64,000 bases of DNA. Origin: Actinocorallia sp. API 0066 (GTDB taxonomy: Bacteria; Actinomycetota; Actinomycetes; Streptosporangiales; Streptosporangiaceae). Positions 8,025 through 12,428 of this stretch are shown in pieces (the first letter of the stretch is position 1; each line of letters begins with the position of its first letter). The stretch lies in NCBI RefSeq assembly GCF_020991275.1, contig NZ_JAJLQY010000001.1, positions 496,001 to 560,000 of the forward strand, written 5' to 3'. The notes beneath the pieces were generated by a model, which was not told the origin of the DNA, searched no databases, and saw only the letters and a list, made by a program, of their open reading frames with translations. The translations under genes and the position numbers were made by a program.

Positions 8025-8050
8025 CATGATCTAGCTGGATCTAGATCATG
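8025..8050. promoter_or_regulatory. Perfect 10-bp inverted repeat, candidate operator
   Basis: CATGATCTAG (8025-8034) and CTAGATCATG (8041-8050) are exact inverted copies around CTGGAT. They sit in an AT-rich patch 32 bp before the first nuclease-helicase start. A dimeric repressor site or a transcript hairpin are both possible. Confidence 0.6.
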
Positions 8051-8082
8051 GTGGAGAAGATTCTTCGTGTGAGGGATGCCCG

Positions 8083-10062
8083 GTGTCACAGACCCCCCGA
8101 TGCGCGCGGCGGAGCACTGTGAGGACGCTCAGGGAAGAGCTGACCAGCCCTTCTGTGTCGCAGAGAGCCTTCGTGCGTGCCCTGAGCGCCCACTACAAGG
8201 AGGCGACGGGCAGGACCGCTTCCCCCGGCCAGAAGAAGGCGTGGGTCAACAGCCTGTCGAGCCTCACCGCAGATCTCATGGACGCGGGCCTCGACAGACT
8301 GGAGATGATCGTCGAGTACGTGATGCCGACGAACAAGAGCAGCCAGGCCGACGTCGTGCTGGCGGGCGTTGATCGACTTGGCCGGGACGTCCTGATGGTG
8401 GTCGAGCTGAAGCAATGGGGCACGGTCACCCCTTATGAGGACGACGCGTCCAGCGATGCGGACTGGGCTGTGGACGGAGAGGGCGGTCCAGGGCCAGAGC
8501 TCTTCGTCGTTCCGGGCCTGCCGACTCCCCAGGCGCATCCGCTCGACCAGTTGGAGGGTTACTGCTCGACGATCACCCACTACTGCGGAATGGTCGGTGG
8601 CCGGGAGGAGGTCGTGCATGGCGTCGTCTATCTGCACGATGCTCAGCGGTCGTCTGTGGAAGACCTGTTCCGGCGCGCTCCGCAGCCGCGCAGGCACATC
8701 TTCACAGCCGACCGGCGAGGCGAGTTCATCCGGTATCTGCGCGAGGTCTTCGCGCCCGAGCCCGGATGGGACGTCGCCGACCGCTTTCTGAGCGGTGTCG
8801 TGGTTCCGAGCCCGGCTCTGCTCGACATGGTCGCCGACATCGTCGCGGGTCGGCGGCACTTCACCCTGCTCGATCAGCAGGTGGACGCCTACAACGCGGT
8901 GGAGCACGCGGTGCGCAGCGCCAGGAGCGACAGGGCCCGACGCGTGGTGGTCGTCGTGGGCCGCGCGGGATCCGGCAAGACGGCCATCGCCCTGGAGCTC
9001 CTGGGCCGTCTGTCCGGACGGGGGATCCGCGTCGAGCTCGCGGCGGGGTCGGCCGCGATGGCCAAGACGGTCCAGAAGGAGCTGGCCGGGAACCGCAAGG
9101 GCCATGCGAAGCTCGTCAACAAGTTCCACCGCTACGTCGACCCGGACCGGGAGCTCGACGTTCTGATCGTTGATGAGGCCCACAGGGCGAGGGACAGGAC
9201 GCGGATACAGCGCCATGCCCGCTACACCAGCGACGAGCATCAGCTGAGGACGCTCATCAAGGCGGCGCGCGTCACCGTTTTCCTGACGGATCATCATCAG
9301 AGCATCAGGCCGAACGAGTGCGGGACCGTGACGGCCATCAAGAACGCCGCGCAGGAACTCGACGTGCACTTCTACCCGGTCATCGAGTTGGAGCAGCAAT
9401 GGCGCTGCGGAGGGAGCAGCGTTTACGAGGGGTGGCTCCGTGCGGTTCTCGGCCTTGGCGCGGAGGACCTTGAGGCGCGTGCGGACCGGAACGTCGAGAA
9501 GTGGCCGGGCGACCCTTCCTTCGACGTGAAGATCGCGTCCTCTCCCGCCGTTATGGAGGATTTCCTGCGGTCGAAGATCGAAGCCGGGCAGTCCGCGCGT
9601 ATCGCCGCCGGTTACTGCTGGCGGTGGGACAAGAATCCCGAGGGCGAGCTCACCAAGGACGTACGCATCGGTGACTGGGAGCGCCCATGGAACAGTCCGT
9701 GGCCAGGCAGGTTGGGGAACGTGCCGCCCTCGTCGCTCTGGGCGAGTCAGGACGGTGGGTTCGATCAGATCGGCTGCGTCTACACCGCGCAGGGGCTCGA
9801 GTACGACTGGGCGGGTGTGATCATCGGGGATGACCTGGTCGCCCGTGGCGGGCGTCTTGTCGTGGACAGGAACAAGAACGCGGATCAGGTCGTACGCGCC
9901 AGCCAGGTCTCGGATGAGCGTTTTGACCAACTCATTCGCAACACCTACTACATCCTGCTGACTCGGGGACTGCGTGGTGTTGTGATCTGCTCGACGGATG
10001 AGGAGACGCGTGCTTATCTTCGTGACCTGATCGGCGGGTCGCCGGAGGCGTGCCTCGACTGA
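8083..10062 (+). CDS. Nuclease-helicase with Schlafen-group-3 (DUF2075) domain, first of a tandem pair
   Basis: 659 aa from GTG 8083 (GAGGG 7 nt upstream); alignment with the neighbour would also allow GTG 8119. The N-terminal part has a PD-(D/E)xK-like core: D90 in QADVVLAG and E108-x-K110 in VVELKQW. The helicase has Walker A GRAGSGKTA (K299), Walker B LIVDEAH (361-367), a motif III-like LTDHHQSIRP (401-410), CVYTAQGLEYDW (about 565-576) and LLTRG (625-629). The family (Pfam SLFN-g3_helicase) occurs in defence contexts and resembles the helicase part of group III Schlafens. DHHQ replaces the DENQ seen at this place in the neighbour, so it may have diverged. Role in phage defence or nucleic-acid surveillance is inference. 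Confidence 0.82.
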   Translation: MSQTPRCARRSTVRTLREELTSPSVSQRAFVRALSAHYKEATGRTASPGQKKAWVNSLSSLTADLMDAGLDRLEMIVEYVMPTNKSSQADVVLAGVDRLGRDVLMVVELKQWGTVTPYEDDASSDADWAVDGEGGPGPELFVVPGLPTPQAHPLDQLEGYCSTITHYCGMVGGREEVVHGVVYLHDAQRSSVEDLFRRAPQPRRHIFTADRRGEFIRYLREVFAPEPGWDVADRFLSGVVVPSPALLDMVADIVAGRRHFTLLDQQVDAYNAVEHAVRSARSDRARRVVVVVGRAGSGKTAIALELLGRLSGRGIRVELAAGSAAMAKTVQKELAGNRKGHAKLVNKFHRYVDPDRELDVLIVDEAHRARDRTRIQRHARYTSDEHQLRTLIKAARVTVFLTDHHQSIRPNECGTVTAIKNAAQELDVHFYPVIELEQQWRCGGSSVYEGWLRAVLGLGAEDLEARADRNVEKWPGDPSFDVKIASSPAVMEDFLRSKIEAGQSARIAAGYCWRWDKNPEGELTKDVRIGDWERPWNSPWPGRLGNVPPSSLWASQDGGFDQIGCVYTAQGLEYDWAGVIIGDDLVARGGRLVVDRNKNADQVVRASQVSDERFDQLIRNTYYILLTRGLRGVVICSTDEETRAYLRDLIGGSPEACLD

Positions 10063-10202
10063 TGCTCCGCGAAATGCGGGGCGTCACCTCGGGACGCGGG
10101 GCTAGGCTGATTCTTGTTCAGGCGGCATGGCGGGCTTCCGGGGGTGGTTCCGGAACATGTCCCCGCTCGCGCGAGGGTTTGTGCTGTTCGGGGGTGGGTT
10201 GG

Positions 10203-12074
10203 GTGACGGCGTTCCGGCATTCCGCGCAGAGTCTTGCCGCGTTGGCCTCGCCGATGGAGACGGCGTTGAGTGAGCGGATCGCCGAGCATCTGCGGTTGGC
10301 GGCGCGGAGGAATCCCGGTGCCGCGGAGCGGCGGTCGTGGGACCGGAGTCTGCCCGTCCTGGCGCGGGACCTTGTGGACGCGGGGCTCGGGCAGGTGGAG
10401 ATGCTGGCGGAGTACCAGTTGCCGCTGACGAGCAAGCGGGCCGACGTGGTGCTCGCCGGAGTCGGGCATGACGGGAACGACGCGTACGTCGTGGTCGAGC
10501 TCAAGCAGTGGAGCCGGGCGGAGCTGTACGAGGACGACCCGGAGCTGGTGCTGGTCGAGGGGATGCCGGGCGGGCCGAAGCTGCACCCGGCGCGGCAGGT
10601 GGCGCAGTACTGCGAGTACCTGCGGGACTTCGTGGGCGCGCTCGACGGAGCGCGGCTGGACGGGGTGGCGTACCTGCACAACGCGGAGGACGGCGACGTG
10701 CTCGACCTCTTCGGGCAGGTGGTGTCCGAAGAGGGGAGGCTGTTCACGAAGACCCGGCGCGGGGCCTTCCAGGAGTACCTGCGTAAGCGCTTCGCTCCGG
10801 AGCCCGGCGCGGCCGCGGCGGACCGGCTGATGGACAGCGCGATCCGCCCGTCCAAGCAGCTCATGGAGCTGGGCGCGAAGGAGATCAAGGAGCGGGAACA
10901 GTTCGTCCTCCTGGATGAGCAGCGGCTCGCCTACGACCTCGTGATGCACGCCGTGCGGTCCGCCCAGCACGCGGACGCCAAGGAGGTCGTCGTCGTCACG
11001 GGAGGGCCGGGCAGCGGCAAGAGCGTCATCGCGCTGTCCGTCCTGGGCGAGCTGTACCGGCAGGGGCGGACGGCCCTGCACGCCACCGGGTCCTCGGCCT
11101 TCACCACGACCCTGCGCAACCACGTGGGAAGAGGTTCGACCCGGGTCAAGGCGCTCTTCAAGTACTTCAACAGCTTCATGGCGGCCGAGCGGAACTCTCT
11201 CGACGTGCTCATCTGCGACGAGGCGCACCGGCTCAGGGAGACCTCCGTCAACCGTTTCACGCGGGCGGAACTGCGCAGCGGACGGCCGCAGATAGACGAG
11301 CTCATCTCAGTAGCCAGGGTTCCGGTGTTCCTCCTGGACGAGAACCAGGTGGTGCGTCCAGGGGAACTGGGCAGCCCGGCGGAGATCCGCGCCTACGCGG
11401 AGGGGCGCGGCTTCAGGGTCCACGACATTTCGCTCGACGGGCAGTTCCGCTGCGGCGGCAGCGCCGTGTACGAGGACTGGGTGCTGCGCCTGCTGGGCCT
11501 GCGCGGAGACGGGCCGAGCGCCTGGCCGGGCGACGACCACTTCCGCGTCGAGGTGGCGGGGAGCCCCGCCGAGCTCGAGGAGCGGCTCCGTGAGGAGCAG
11601 GAGGCGGGGTACTCCGCCCGGATGACCGCCGGTTACTGCTGGCCGTGGAGCGACCCCGTGGACGGGGCCCTCGTCCCGGACGTGCGGATCGGAGACTGGG
11701 CCCGGCCCTGGAACGTCAAGGGCGACCGCGCGGTTGGCACCGCGCCGGCGAGCCCGATGTGGGCGACCGCGCCGGGCGGGTTCGGGCAGGTGGGGTGCGT
11801 CTACACCGCGCAGGGGTTCGAGTACGACTGGAACGGCGTGATCCTCGGTCCCGACCTGGTGGTCCGCGGGGGGCGGTTCGTGGCCGTGCGGGAGGCGACG
11901 AAGGATCCTGTGTTCAGGAAGAGCACGCCCTTGCCGGACTATGACCGGCTGATCCGGCACACCTACAAGGTGCTGCTGACGCGCGGGATGATGGGGACCG
12001 TTCTGTACTCGGTCGACGAGGAGACGCGGGAGTTCCTGGCGGGGCTTGTCGGGCGGGGGTGGGGGGCGTCTTAG
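10203..12074 (+). CDS. Nuclease-helicase with Schlafen-group-3 (DUF2075) domain, second of a tandem pair
   Basis: 623 aa from GTG 10203, the start best matching the first paralogue's N-terminus; the open frame extends upstream to 10050. It shares the full layout of its neighbour: D81 in RADVVLAG and E99-x-K101 in VVELKQW (nuclease), Walker A GGPGSGKS (K273), Walker B LICDEAH (336-342), LLDENQVVRPGE, CVYTAQGFEYDW and LLTRG near the C-terminus. All helicase motifs look intact here. The pair clearly arose by duplication but has diverged, judging by eye to somewhat under half identity. A TAGGCT box near 10100 may give it its own promoter. Its TAG stop forms part of the -10 box of the next gene. 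Confidence 0.82.
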   Translation: MTAFRHSAQSLAALASPMETALSERIAEHLRLAARRNPGAAERRSWDRSLPVLARDLVDAGLGQVEMLAEYQLPLTSKRADVVLAGVGHDGNDAYVVVELKQWSRAELYEDDPELVLVEGMPGGPKLHPARQVAQYCEYLRDFVGALDGARLDGVAYLHNAEDGDVLDLFGQVVSEEGRLFTKTRRGAFQEYLRKRFAPEPGAAAADRLMDSAIRPSKQLMELGAKEIKEREQFVLLDEQRLAYDLVMHAVRSAQHADAKEVVVVTGGPGSGKSVIALSVLGELYRQGRTALHATGSSAFTTTLRNHVGRGSTRVKALFKYFNSFMAAERNSLDVLICDEAHRLRETSVNRFTRAELRSGRPQIDELISVARVPVFLLDENQVVRPGELGSPAEIRAYAEGRGFRVHDISLDGQFRCGGSAVYEDWVLRLLGLRGDGPSAWPGDDHFRVEVAGSPAELEERLREEQEAGYSARMTAGYCWPWSDPVDGALVPDVRIGDWARPWNVKGDRAVGTAPASPMWATAPGGFGQVGCVYTAQGFEYDWNGVILGPDLVVRGGRFVAVREATKDPVFRKSTPLPDYDRLIRHTYKVLLTRGMMGTVLYSVDEETREFLAGLVGRGWGAS

Positions 12075-12083
12075 GGTGGGGGC
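12072..12083 (+). promoter_or_regulatory. Leaderless-type -10 element before the MazG-like gene
   Basis: TAGGGT (12072-12077) followed by 6 nt and the ATG at 12084. The first three bases are the stop codon of the upstream helicase. A G-rich stretch next to the ATG could also act as a weak ribosome binding site. Confidence 0.45.
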
Positions 12084-12428
12084 ATGGTGGAGGGGATGGA
12101 TGGGTTGGTGGGGAGGTTGCGTGAGGTGGTTGGGGAGAGGGGGTGGGCGAGGTATCACACGCCGAAGAATTTGGTGATGGCGTTGGCGGGGGAGGTGGGG
12201 GAGTTGGTGGCGGAGTTCCAGTGGTTGACGGAGGAGGAGTCGGTGGGGGTGATGGCGCGGGAGGAGAAGGCGGCGGCGGTGCGGTCGGAACTGGCGGACG
12301 TGTTCACGTATCTGGTGGAGTTGGCGGACGTGCTGGGGGTTGATCTTGTGCGGGCGGCGCATGAGAAGGCGGATGTTGTGGCGGAAAGGTATGCGCGGGG
12401 GGAGTACGCGGAGTTCGACCAGCCCTGA
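12084..12428 (+). CDS. MazG-like nucleotide pyrophosphohydrolase (dCTPP1/RS21-C6 type)
   Basis: 114 aa, all-alpha. YHTPKNLVMALAGEVGELVA and the later SELADVFTYLVELAD give the metal-binding E37xxE40 and E69xxD72 pairs of the MazG/dCTPase superfamily; FQWLTEEES is typical of the dCTPP1-like branch that hydrolyses dNTPs to dNMP and pyrophosphate. It lies 9 nt after the second nuclease-helicase on the same strand, so a shared function (nucleotide clean-up or depletion) is possible but unproven. Codon use is odd: almost every codon ends in G or T (GGG, GAG, GTG, TTG), giving a strong G skew unlike the flanking genes. Confidence 0.85.
   Translation: MVEGMDGLVGRLREVVGERGWARYHTPKNLVMALAGEVGELVAEFQWLTEEESVGVMAREEKAAAVRSELADVFTYLVELADVLGVDLVRAAHEKADVVAERYARGEYAEFDQP

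What the first reader, a model, noticed from the sequence alone, without database searches (positions are those of the whole stretch)
8083..12428. Tandem Schlafen-type nuclease-helicases followed by a MazG-like pyrophosphohydrolase
Two paralogues, each with a PD-(D/E)xK-like N-terminus and a DUF2075/SLFN-g3 helicase, stand head to tail, with a dNTP pyrophosphohydrolase-type gene 9 nt after the second. Seen: all three frames intact, same strand, key motifs readable. Known: DUF2075 domains resemble group III Schlafen helicases, and MazG-type enzymes alter nucleotide pools. Inference: the three may form a nucleic-acid sensing and nucleotide-depletion system against phages or plasmids. I do not know a described system with this exact composition.
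Basis: partly seen in the sequence, partly recalled or inferred. Interest (0 to 1): 0.75.

Follow-up and report, generated by a model that had tools for sequence, protein, structure and literature searches.

The report
Nuclease-helicase pair with nucleotide hydrolase
Three neighbouring genes in an actinomycete encode two related DNA-cutting motor proteins and a small enzyme that breaks down DNA building blocks; the motor-plus-enzyme pair recurs side by side in many bacteria and an archaeon, often on mobile DNA, and looks like an undescribed defence against viruses or plasmids.

Summary
Genes A (8083-10062) and B (10203-12074, ORF open from 10050) are 43% identical paralogues: a PD-(D/E)xK-type nuclease domain joined to an SF1 helicase of the Pfam 'SLFN-g3' family. 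Gene C (12084-12428) is an intact MazG-like/dCTP-pyrophosphatase-type enzyme. The B-C link is not local. Of 396 genomes across the phylum 21 carry B, 16 of those carry C, and in 11 the C match lies within 111 nt of B on the same strand. C is within 1 kb of B in 41 of 80 named actinobacterial loci, on 7 plasmids from several bacterial phyla and a haloarchaeon, and in 4 of 5 viral contigs, in several relative orders. B is patchy (105 of 297 family genomes), its surroundings vary, and in a congener it abuts a three-gene PADLOC candidate defence operon. The helicase is Schlafen-like; the N-terminus is not a Schlafen core. Best reading: a mobile anti-phage/anti-plasmid module in which the nuclease-helicase attacks DNA and C alters the dNTP pool. 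Protection and substrate are untested, enrichment near defence genes is only modest, and C is common without B. I found no description of the pair in the papers searched.

The parts
8083..10062 (+). Gene A, 659 aa: PD-(D/E)xK-like N-terminus (motif VVELKQW) plus SLFN-g3 SF1 helicase
   Evidence: ORF; PF09848 E 5.7e-78, residues 286-639; 43% identical to B; 69% identical counterpart beside B in congener G002
10203..12074 (+). Gene B, 623 aa from the likely GTG start (ORF open from 10050): PD-(D/E)xK-type nuclease + SLFN-g3 SF1 helicase
   Evidence: ORF; PF09848 E 6.5e-83; start inferred from conserved N-termini; model pLDDT 89.7
10443..10505 (+). Nuclease active-site stretch of B: D81 ... E99-x-K101 (Q102 follows)
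   Evidence: E70, D81, E99, K101, Q102 invariant in the 42 aligned sequences; fold matches Can2, Card1, EndoMS, McrBC, NucC, SduA and restriction enzymes
11001..11021 (+). Walker A of B (residues 267-273)
   Evidence: G267, G270, G272, K273 invariant in the 42 aligned sequences; D339-E340 (Walker B, 11217-11222) too
12084..12428 (+). Gene C, 114 aa: MazG-like / DCTPP1-type all-alpha NTP pyrophosphohydrolase
   Evidence: PF12643 and PF03819 above cut-off; dCTP pyrophosphatase 1 E 7e-17; E37, E40, E69, D72, W21, W47 invariant in 52 of 52 sampled B-adjacent homologues
12072..12083 (+). TAGGGT hexamer overlapping the B stop codon, 6 nt before the C ATG: possible -10 box of a leaderless C transcript
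   Evidence: read; promoter function is inference only
8025..8050 (+). 10-bp inverted repeat CATGATCTAG-6-CTAGATCATG upstream of A; possible regulator site
   Evidence: read; nucleotide similarity to congener G002 starts only at 8064, so conservation is not shown

Best explanation
A-B-C is one form of a widespread, mobile gene module that acts in conflict with phages or plasmids. SHOWN: two nuclease-helicase paralogues, with invariant nuclease and ATPase residues; an intact dCTPase/MazG-like enzyme; recurrent adjacency of B and C across phyla and in several orders; patchy distribution, varying surroundings, presence on plasmids and viral contigs. INFERRED: B (and A, perhaps as a hetero-complex, since paralogue pairs recur) loads onto invading or abnormally replicating DNA and moves along it (SF1 motor), and the nuclease domain cuts it. 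C hydrolyses dNTPs (by homology dCTP or 5-modified dCTP) to the monophosphate plus pyrophosphate. This starves phage replication and repair of the cut DNA, or removes modified precursors, and so makes the nuclease attack decisive.
For: Domains and residues. Linkage: in the phylum sample 16 of 21 B genomes carry C against 23 of 375 without B, and 11 have the matches within 111 nt; in the family sample 93 of 105 against 75 of 192; 41 of 80 named loci; C is the commonest neighbour cluster (37 of 81 loci, next 13). Four relative arrangements, and on the C tree the label 'beside B' needs 17 changes, at least 5 of them forced by well-supported branches, which speaks against one frozen synteny. Other phyla: Priestia, Lactiplantibacillus, Ligilactobacillus, Marivirga, Halomonas and Halalkalicoccus plasmids, with annotated gaps down to 5 nt. 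Viral contigs: C adjacent in 4 of 5. Defence context: matches to PDC-M55 A, B and C directly upstream in congener G002; at E 1e-50 or better the printed PADLOC rows name 7 families near B, none in arbitrary loci; MrcB_N and type I restriction genes beside the Priestia pair, and DruA or Cas6/Cas10 near B copies without adjacent C.
Against: No phage or plasmid assay exists. In the window itself the flanks I scanned (10 genes) are metabolic or unknown, without defence families by Pfam. The PADLOC comparison is weak: 56 families near B at 1e-15 against 4 in arbitrary loci, but the 25 printed rows reduce to 8 names, 14 rows being models that seem to hit one protein kinase, and the arbitrary loci still had 10 family-protein matches (mad3 in 6 proteins). 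About 6 proteins against 0 at 1e-50 gives p 0.03. Neighbours of C without B score as high (55 families), so it is not specific to B. C occurs without B in 75 of 192 family genomes; its B-adjacent members form no clade of their own, although the label is clustered (0 of 500 shuffles as low), and have the same catalytic residues as the rest, as expected of a general housecleaning enzyme. 36 of the 80 best B loci show no C in the fetched stretch (some stretches end at contig ends). In four phylum-sample genomes of genus g54, C is 8, 21 or 29 kb away or on another contig.
Confidence: 0.48

Rival explanations
1. Nucleotide-gated nuclease, as proposed for Gabija: dNTP/NTP levels hold the nuclease-helicase silent, and C (or phage replication) lowers them and so releases it; C is a regulator, not an effector.
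For: GajA is inhibited by physiological NTP/dNTP and proposed to act on nucleotide depletion (PMC8136825, abstract and outline seen). B joins an intact ATPase to the nuclease, and C is catalytically intact in 52 of 52 sampled B-adjacent copies.
Against: No nucleotide effect on B is known. GajA is of another nuclease type (recalled), and neither A, B nor C matched a GajA model at E 1 or better. C is not near many B genes.
Confidence: 0.2
2. Accessory DNA repair and nucleotide sanitation, not defence: the nuclease-helicase processes damaged DNA and C removes damaged or modified dNTPs.
For: DCTPP1/MazG enzymes are housecleaning enzymes (recalled); C also occurs alone; the helicase is close in fold to UvrD and RecD2.
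Against: B is in 35% of family and 5% of phylum genomes, on plasmids and viral contigs, and next to restriction or candidate defence genes in some records.
Confidence: 0.16
3. C is an unrelated housekeeping gene beside which B tends to insert; adjacency reflects an integration preference.
For: C is in 75 of 192 B-less family genomes. G192 and G007 share several gene clusters around C, and only G192 has B, 3.5 kb from C. B-adjacent and other C proteins intermingle on the tree.
Against: Adjacency recurs on both sides of B and in both orientations, in distant phyla, plasmids and viral contigs, with gaps down to 5-9 nt, while the outer flanks vary.
Confidence: 0.12

Closest known systems
Group III Schlafens (PF09848 helicase)
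   Same: Helicase domain: Pfam SLFN-g3 match; model aligns with SLFN11 Z 18.4 over 279 residues and SLFN14 Z 17.5 over 281
   Different: N-terminus is a restriction-type nuclease fold, not the Schlafen core; UvrD fits the helicase better and RecD2 equally well
dCTP pyrophosphatase 1 (RS21-C6) / MazG-like PF12643
   Same: Match over residues 13-103 of C, E 7e-17; acidic metal-site pattern intact
   Different: Bacterial, 114 aa, linked to a nuclease-helicase; substrate unknown
PADLOC phage defence candidate PDC-S41
   Same: Best PADLOC match of A and B (52-53 bits, E 9e-15 and 4e-15)
   Different: Weak and broken into three stretches; the tool gives no description (that S means single-gene is recalled)
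Gabija (GajAB)
   Same: Nuclease plus helicase, with activity tied to nucleotide level (PMC8136825, abstract)
   Different: No GajA match; only marginal GajB matches for B (E 0.02)
Can2/Cdn1/Card1 nucleases
   Same: Nearest folds to the B nuclease domain (Z 9.5, 9.5 and 7.3)
   Different: Those are cyclic-oligoadenylate-activated (entry titles); no such sensor domain matched in A or B by Pfam; a helicase instead
Predicted MazG defence genes (DefensePredictor, PMC13092281)
   Same: A MazG domain is highlighted there as predicted, not validated, defence (passages read)
   Different: The passages read do not name its partner genes

Membership tests
Schlafen family | C-terminal group III helicase | tested here: met
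   PF09848 full-length, E 6e-78 and 7e-83; SLFN11 Z 18.4
Schlafen family | N-terminal Schlafen core (AlbA-type) nuclease | tested here: not met
   No Schlafen/AlbA Pfam match in A or B at E 1 or better; the B N-domain model positively matches another nuclease fold
PD-(D/E)xK nuclease superfamily | Fold and invariant D...ExK | tested here: met
   Most of the 50 rows are named nucleases or restriction enzymes (their PD-(D/E)xK type is recalled), best Z 9.5; D81, E99, K101 invariant in 42 aligned sequences. Foldseek alone is weak (best E 8.6e-3, none at 0.001). Modelled for B; A by sequence motif and alignment only
MazG-like / DCTPP1 NTP pyrophosphohydrolases | Profile match and metal-binding acidic residues | tested here: met
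   Above both Pfam cut-offs; E37, E40, E69, D72 invariant in 52 of 52 sampled adjacent copies
MazG-like / DCTPP1 NTP pyrophosphohydrolases | Hydrolysis of dCTP or modified dCTP | not testable with these tools
   needs an enzyme assay
Anti-phage defence system | Patchy distribution and presence on mobile DNA | tested here: met
Anti-phage defence system | Enrichment near known defence genes | tested here: inconclusive
   About 6 against 0 of 140 proteins at 1e-50, PDC-M55 beside the module in G002; but equal near C without B and none in the window's scanned flanks
Anti-phage defence system | Protection against a phage or plasmid | not testable with these tools
   needs plaque or transformation assays
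Gabija | GajA nuclease plus GajB | tested here: not met
   No GajA match; GajB only at E 0.02 for B
Nhi / AbiO | Whole-protein match to the nuclease-helicase immunity proteins | tested here: inconclusive
   E 1e-7 to 5e-7, over the ATPase part only
PDC-S41 (PADLOC candidate) | Profile match over the whole protein | tested here: inconclusive
   52-53 bits in three stretches; no curated cut-off shown

The most novel reading that the evidence does not exclude
C removes 5-modified dCTP (methyl- or hydroxymethyl-type) that phages use to build protected DNA, so phage DNA made in such cells is unshielded and is cut by the nuclease-helicase: a defence that pairs a DNA attack with denial of the phage's DNA-modification precursors. 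In line with it: aromatic and histidine residues shared with DCTPP1 (their role in base binding and DCTPP1's liking for modified dCTP are recalled), an MrcB_N gene (McrB-type; binding of modified cytosine recalled) overlapping the MazG-like gene in Priestia, and a GmrSD_N protein beside the module in G002.
Probability: 0.12. Interest if true: 0.85.

Novelty: new variant of a known kind. Interest (0 to 1): 0.61.

Why it matters
Nuclease-helicase defences and nucleotide-pool defences are both known, but a conserved gene pair joining the two, spread over several bacterial phyla and an archaeon and kept under reshuffled gene orders, gives a simple genetic handle on how nucleotide metabolism and DNA attack may cooperate in immunity. 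It would also show the Schlafen-type helicase working with a different nuclease, and give a reason why MazG-like genes turn up in predicted defence sets.

Tried and rejected
Rejected: that A and B are whole Schlafens.

Led nowhere or was weak: a single-protein scan of viral contigs with P0002 gave no relative, while the alignment query gave five; the one without C, L239, ends 365 nt after B. The first control for defence neighbours (genes around C without B) proved unsuitable, because those loci themselves match JetD, DruE, PtuB and MTase_I; I then took 20 stretches at positions chosen by hand in family genomes, narrower in taxonomy than the test loci. For these three scans I gave 140 of 316, 140 of 322 and 140 of 242 eligible proteins; only 25 of 56 and 25 of 55 families are printed, so proteins cannot be counted exactly. 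PDB sequence search with B gave nothing useful. No clean empty site was found: in G002 the downstream backbone is shared but starts 15 kb from the module and the upstream sugar genes lie 4.4 Mb away; in G001 the pieces are on different contigs.

In the C tree I relabelled L045 and L049 as adjacent (partial B beside them) and left out the fragment L051. In one search, 111 rows became 93 by removing identical cores. Of the four phage-collection matches only one was examined further. In one search, 25 of 114 positions of C were checked.

Papers: no hit for DUF2075+MazG or DUF2075+'defense system'+phage; MazG+Schlafen gave one unrelated cancer paper (listing); 'nucleotide pyrophosphohydrolase'+'helicase domain-containing protein'+defense one unrelated paper (listing); PF09848 one paper, which lists it among Abi-protein Pfams (PMC10121019, passage); five DUF2075 papers, listing only. 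Further listings. A preprint on bacterial Schlafens, cited in PMC12839542 (passages), is not held. Searches cover open PMC papers only.

Full report
WHAT IS THERE. The window (G000:C1:496001-560000) holds three intact + strand genes at 8083-12428. A (659 aa) and B (623 aa from the likely GTG at 10203; ORF open from 10050) are paralogues, 43% identical. Each matches PF09848 SLFN-g3_helicase end to end. C (114 aa, 9 nt after B) passes PF12643 MazG-like and, narrowly, PF03819 MazG, and aligns with solved dCTP pyrophosphatase 1 / RS21-C6, best E 7e-17. The genus is probably that of Actinocorallia populi: the same-genus genome G001 has B on a contig of the same length (720,088) and at matching coordinates as the A. 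populi record.

DOMAINS. In 42 aligned sequences the residues E70, D81, E99, K101 and Q102 of B are invariant, as are Walker A (G267, G270, G272, K273) and D339-E340. The full model of B has mean pLDDT 89.7; its part 229-623 aligns with UvrD (Z 22.5), SLFN11 (18.4), RecD2 (18.1), Dda (17.6) and SLFN14 (17.5). The N-terminal 220 residues, predicted alone, have pLDDT 94.7. Foldseek matches are individually weak (best EndoMS E 8.6e-3, none at 0.001), but re-alignment gives Can2 and Cdn1 Z 9.5, EndoMS up to 7.4, Card1 7.3, McrBC 6.8, NucC 6.2, SduA 5.9 and many restriction enzymes. So the N-terminus is a restriction-type (PD-(D/E)xK) nuclease, not a Schlafen core. C has E37, E40, E69, D72, W21 and W47 in 52 of 52 sampled B-adjacent homologues. 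That these correspond to DCTPP1 catalytic and base-binding residues is recalled, with the alignment as support.

IS THE LINK BETWEEN B AND C MORE THAN LOCAL? Yes. Relatives sample: B in 17 of 60 genomes, C in 25 of 60. Family sample: B in 105 of 297, C in 168 of 297, both in 93; 75 of the 192 B-less genomes have C (Fisher p 1e-17, phylogeny not corrected). From the listed rows (150 each) 79 genomes have both, and in 36 of them (37 places) C is within 1 kb of a B homologue: 29 upstream on the same strand, 4 downstream on the same strand (the window among them), 4 on the opposite strand. Phylum sample of 396: B in 21, C in 39, both in 16; in 11 the matches are within 111 nt on the same strand, 8 with C downstream as in the window and 3 upstream. 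In the other five C is 7.9, 20.6 or 29 kb away (three) or on another contig (two). Named loci: 41 of 80 have C within 1 kb (28 same-strand upstream, 12 divergent upstream, 1 same-strand downstream), 3 have it further off, 36 show none in the fetched stretch; 17 of 35 genus or taxon labels have an adjacent pair. When the proteins of these loci and the window were clustered, C formed the largest cluster after B itself (37 of 81 loci), the next being 13.

The pair also crosses phyla. On plasmids, 12 of the 27 records with a C match (together) also hold a listed B match (recounted), and in 7 the two are within 1 kb: Priestia aryabhattai, Lactiplantibacillus plantarum, Ligilactobacillus salivarius, Marivirga, Halomonas, Nocardiopsis eucommiae and the haloarchaeon Halalkalicoccus jeotgali (annotated regions of five). 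The other C records include plain housekeeping-like settings, for example beside ribonucleotide reductase genes in Listeria. In viral contigs 4 of 5 B loci have C beside them, two on the same strand and two divergent, and so has one unnamed phage clone.

HOW THE LINK AROSE. On a tree of 92 C proteins the label 'beside B' needs 17 changes (shuffled mean 30, 0 of 500 shuffles as low), of which well-supported branches force at least 5; few columns, so many forks are open. The arrangement differs by clade: all 15 rows of one mainly Micromonosporaceae clade have C upstream on the same strand, while Kribbella, Demequina, Geodermatophilus and others have it divergent. This fits repeated re-association or repeated loss, not one frozen synteny. 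It also means that C is not a dedicated subfamily: B-adjacent C proteins intermingle with others.

TANDEM PARALOGUES. Of the listed rows 28 pairs of B-family matches lie within 4 kb, head to tail, convergent and divergent; one of these, G113, looks like a single gene broken in two frames. B-family genes only 42-46% identical to B (A-like by identity; no tree made) also stand beside a C without a closer B homologue next to them (G103, G240, G251). The A-B-C order was seen in the window and in G002, where about 760 nt with an ORF without Pfam match separate B and C.

CONTEXT. In the congener G002 the module is 71-80% identical in DNA to the window, but the surroundings differ: the genes downstream of the module in the window are syntenic in G002 but start 15 kb away, and the upstream sugar genes lie 4.4 Mb away; in G001 B and C are 19 kb apart and none of the window's flanking genes tested lies in the stretches fetched around them. 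Directly upstream of the module in G002, divergently, are three genes matching PADLOC candidate PDC-M55 A, B and C (E 7.5e-178, 1e-115, 8.7e-236), the last carrying GmrSD_N. PADLOC scans at 1e-15 of 140 sampled proteins each gave 56 families near B (among the printed ones PtuA, PifA, SoFic, HNH), 55 near C without B (JetD, DruE, PtuB, MTase_I) and 4 in arbitrary stretches (mad3, mad2, mad8, HTH_VI; 10 family-protein matches). Families are not proteins: the 25 printed rows near B reduce to 8 names. At 1e-50 the printed rows leave 7 names near B, probably 6 proteins, against none in the arbitrary stretches (p about 0.03). I read this as a modest signal, shared by C without B. Some plasmid copies lie near MrcB_N and type I restriction genes (Priestia), DruA (Hymenobacter) or Cas6/Cas10 (Limosilactobacillus, no adjacent C). 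In the window itself the scanned flanks are metabolic or unknown.

MECHANISM. I commit to a DNA-targeting defence module in which B/A cut DNA and C changes the dNTP pool in support. Nuclease, motor and hydrolase competence are shown at the level of residues and fold; defence is inferred from distribution and neighbours; substrate, trigger and cooperation are conjecture. The main rival on mechanism is nucleotide gating as proposed for Gabija (PMC8136825, abstract and outline seen). The main rival on function is repair and sanitation. The strongest point against my reading is that C is common without B and looks the same there.

NOVELTY. No paper held couples DUF2075 with MazG or with phage defence; five papers mention DUF2075 at all (listing). 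One lists PF09848 among Abi-protein Pfams used to find defence genes in E. coli (PMC10121019, passage), so the helicase family alone is already suspected of defence. DefensePredictor highlights a MazG domain as predicted but unvalidated (PMC13092281, passages); I could not see its partner genes. Subscription papers and most preprints were not searched. I therefore call it a new variant of a known kind: a nuclease-helicase defence candidate with a nucleotide-hydrolase partner.

Noticed in passing
G002 C1:522151-526098 (L179:4152-8099): In a same-genus genome the A-B-C module abuts, divergently, three genes matching PADLOC candidate PDC-M55 A, B and C (a GmrSD_N protein and an AAA ATPase among them).
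   Followed up: partly
L191:8183-9466 (G137), probably also L192:6333-7586 (G188): A MazG-like gene without B lies beside a JetD (Wadjet) homologue, suggesting that C may pair with other DNA-targeting systems.
   Followed up: partly
L206:4518-7836 (Priestia aryabhattai plasmid): Gene order MrcB_N protein - MazG-like (4-nt overlap) - DUF2075 (59-nt gap), with type I restriction genes further downstream.
   Followed up: partly
L211:13675-15035 (Nocardiopsis flavescens plasmid): The MazG-like gene, 3.7 kb from the DUF2075 gene, overlaps by 4 nt with an HNH endonuclease gene: another possible MazG-nuclease pair.
   Followed up: partly
L100, L103, L105 upstream of C: In Micromonospora the C-B pair is directly preceded by a gene pair that in L103 is HTH_31-DUF5753 and DUF397, a possible regulator.
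   Followed up: partly
window 8025-8050: 10-bp inverted repeat with 6-nt spacer upstream of A.
   Followed up: no
window 12072-12083: TAGGGT overlapping the B stop codon 6 nt before the C start: C may also be made from a leaderless transcript of its own.
   Followed up: no
L158, L194 (same locus as L081), L181: A gene of one cluster (DUF6461 in L158) follows C directly in two genomes and follows B in L181.
   Followed up: partly
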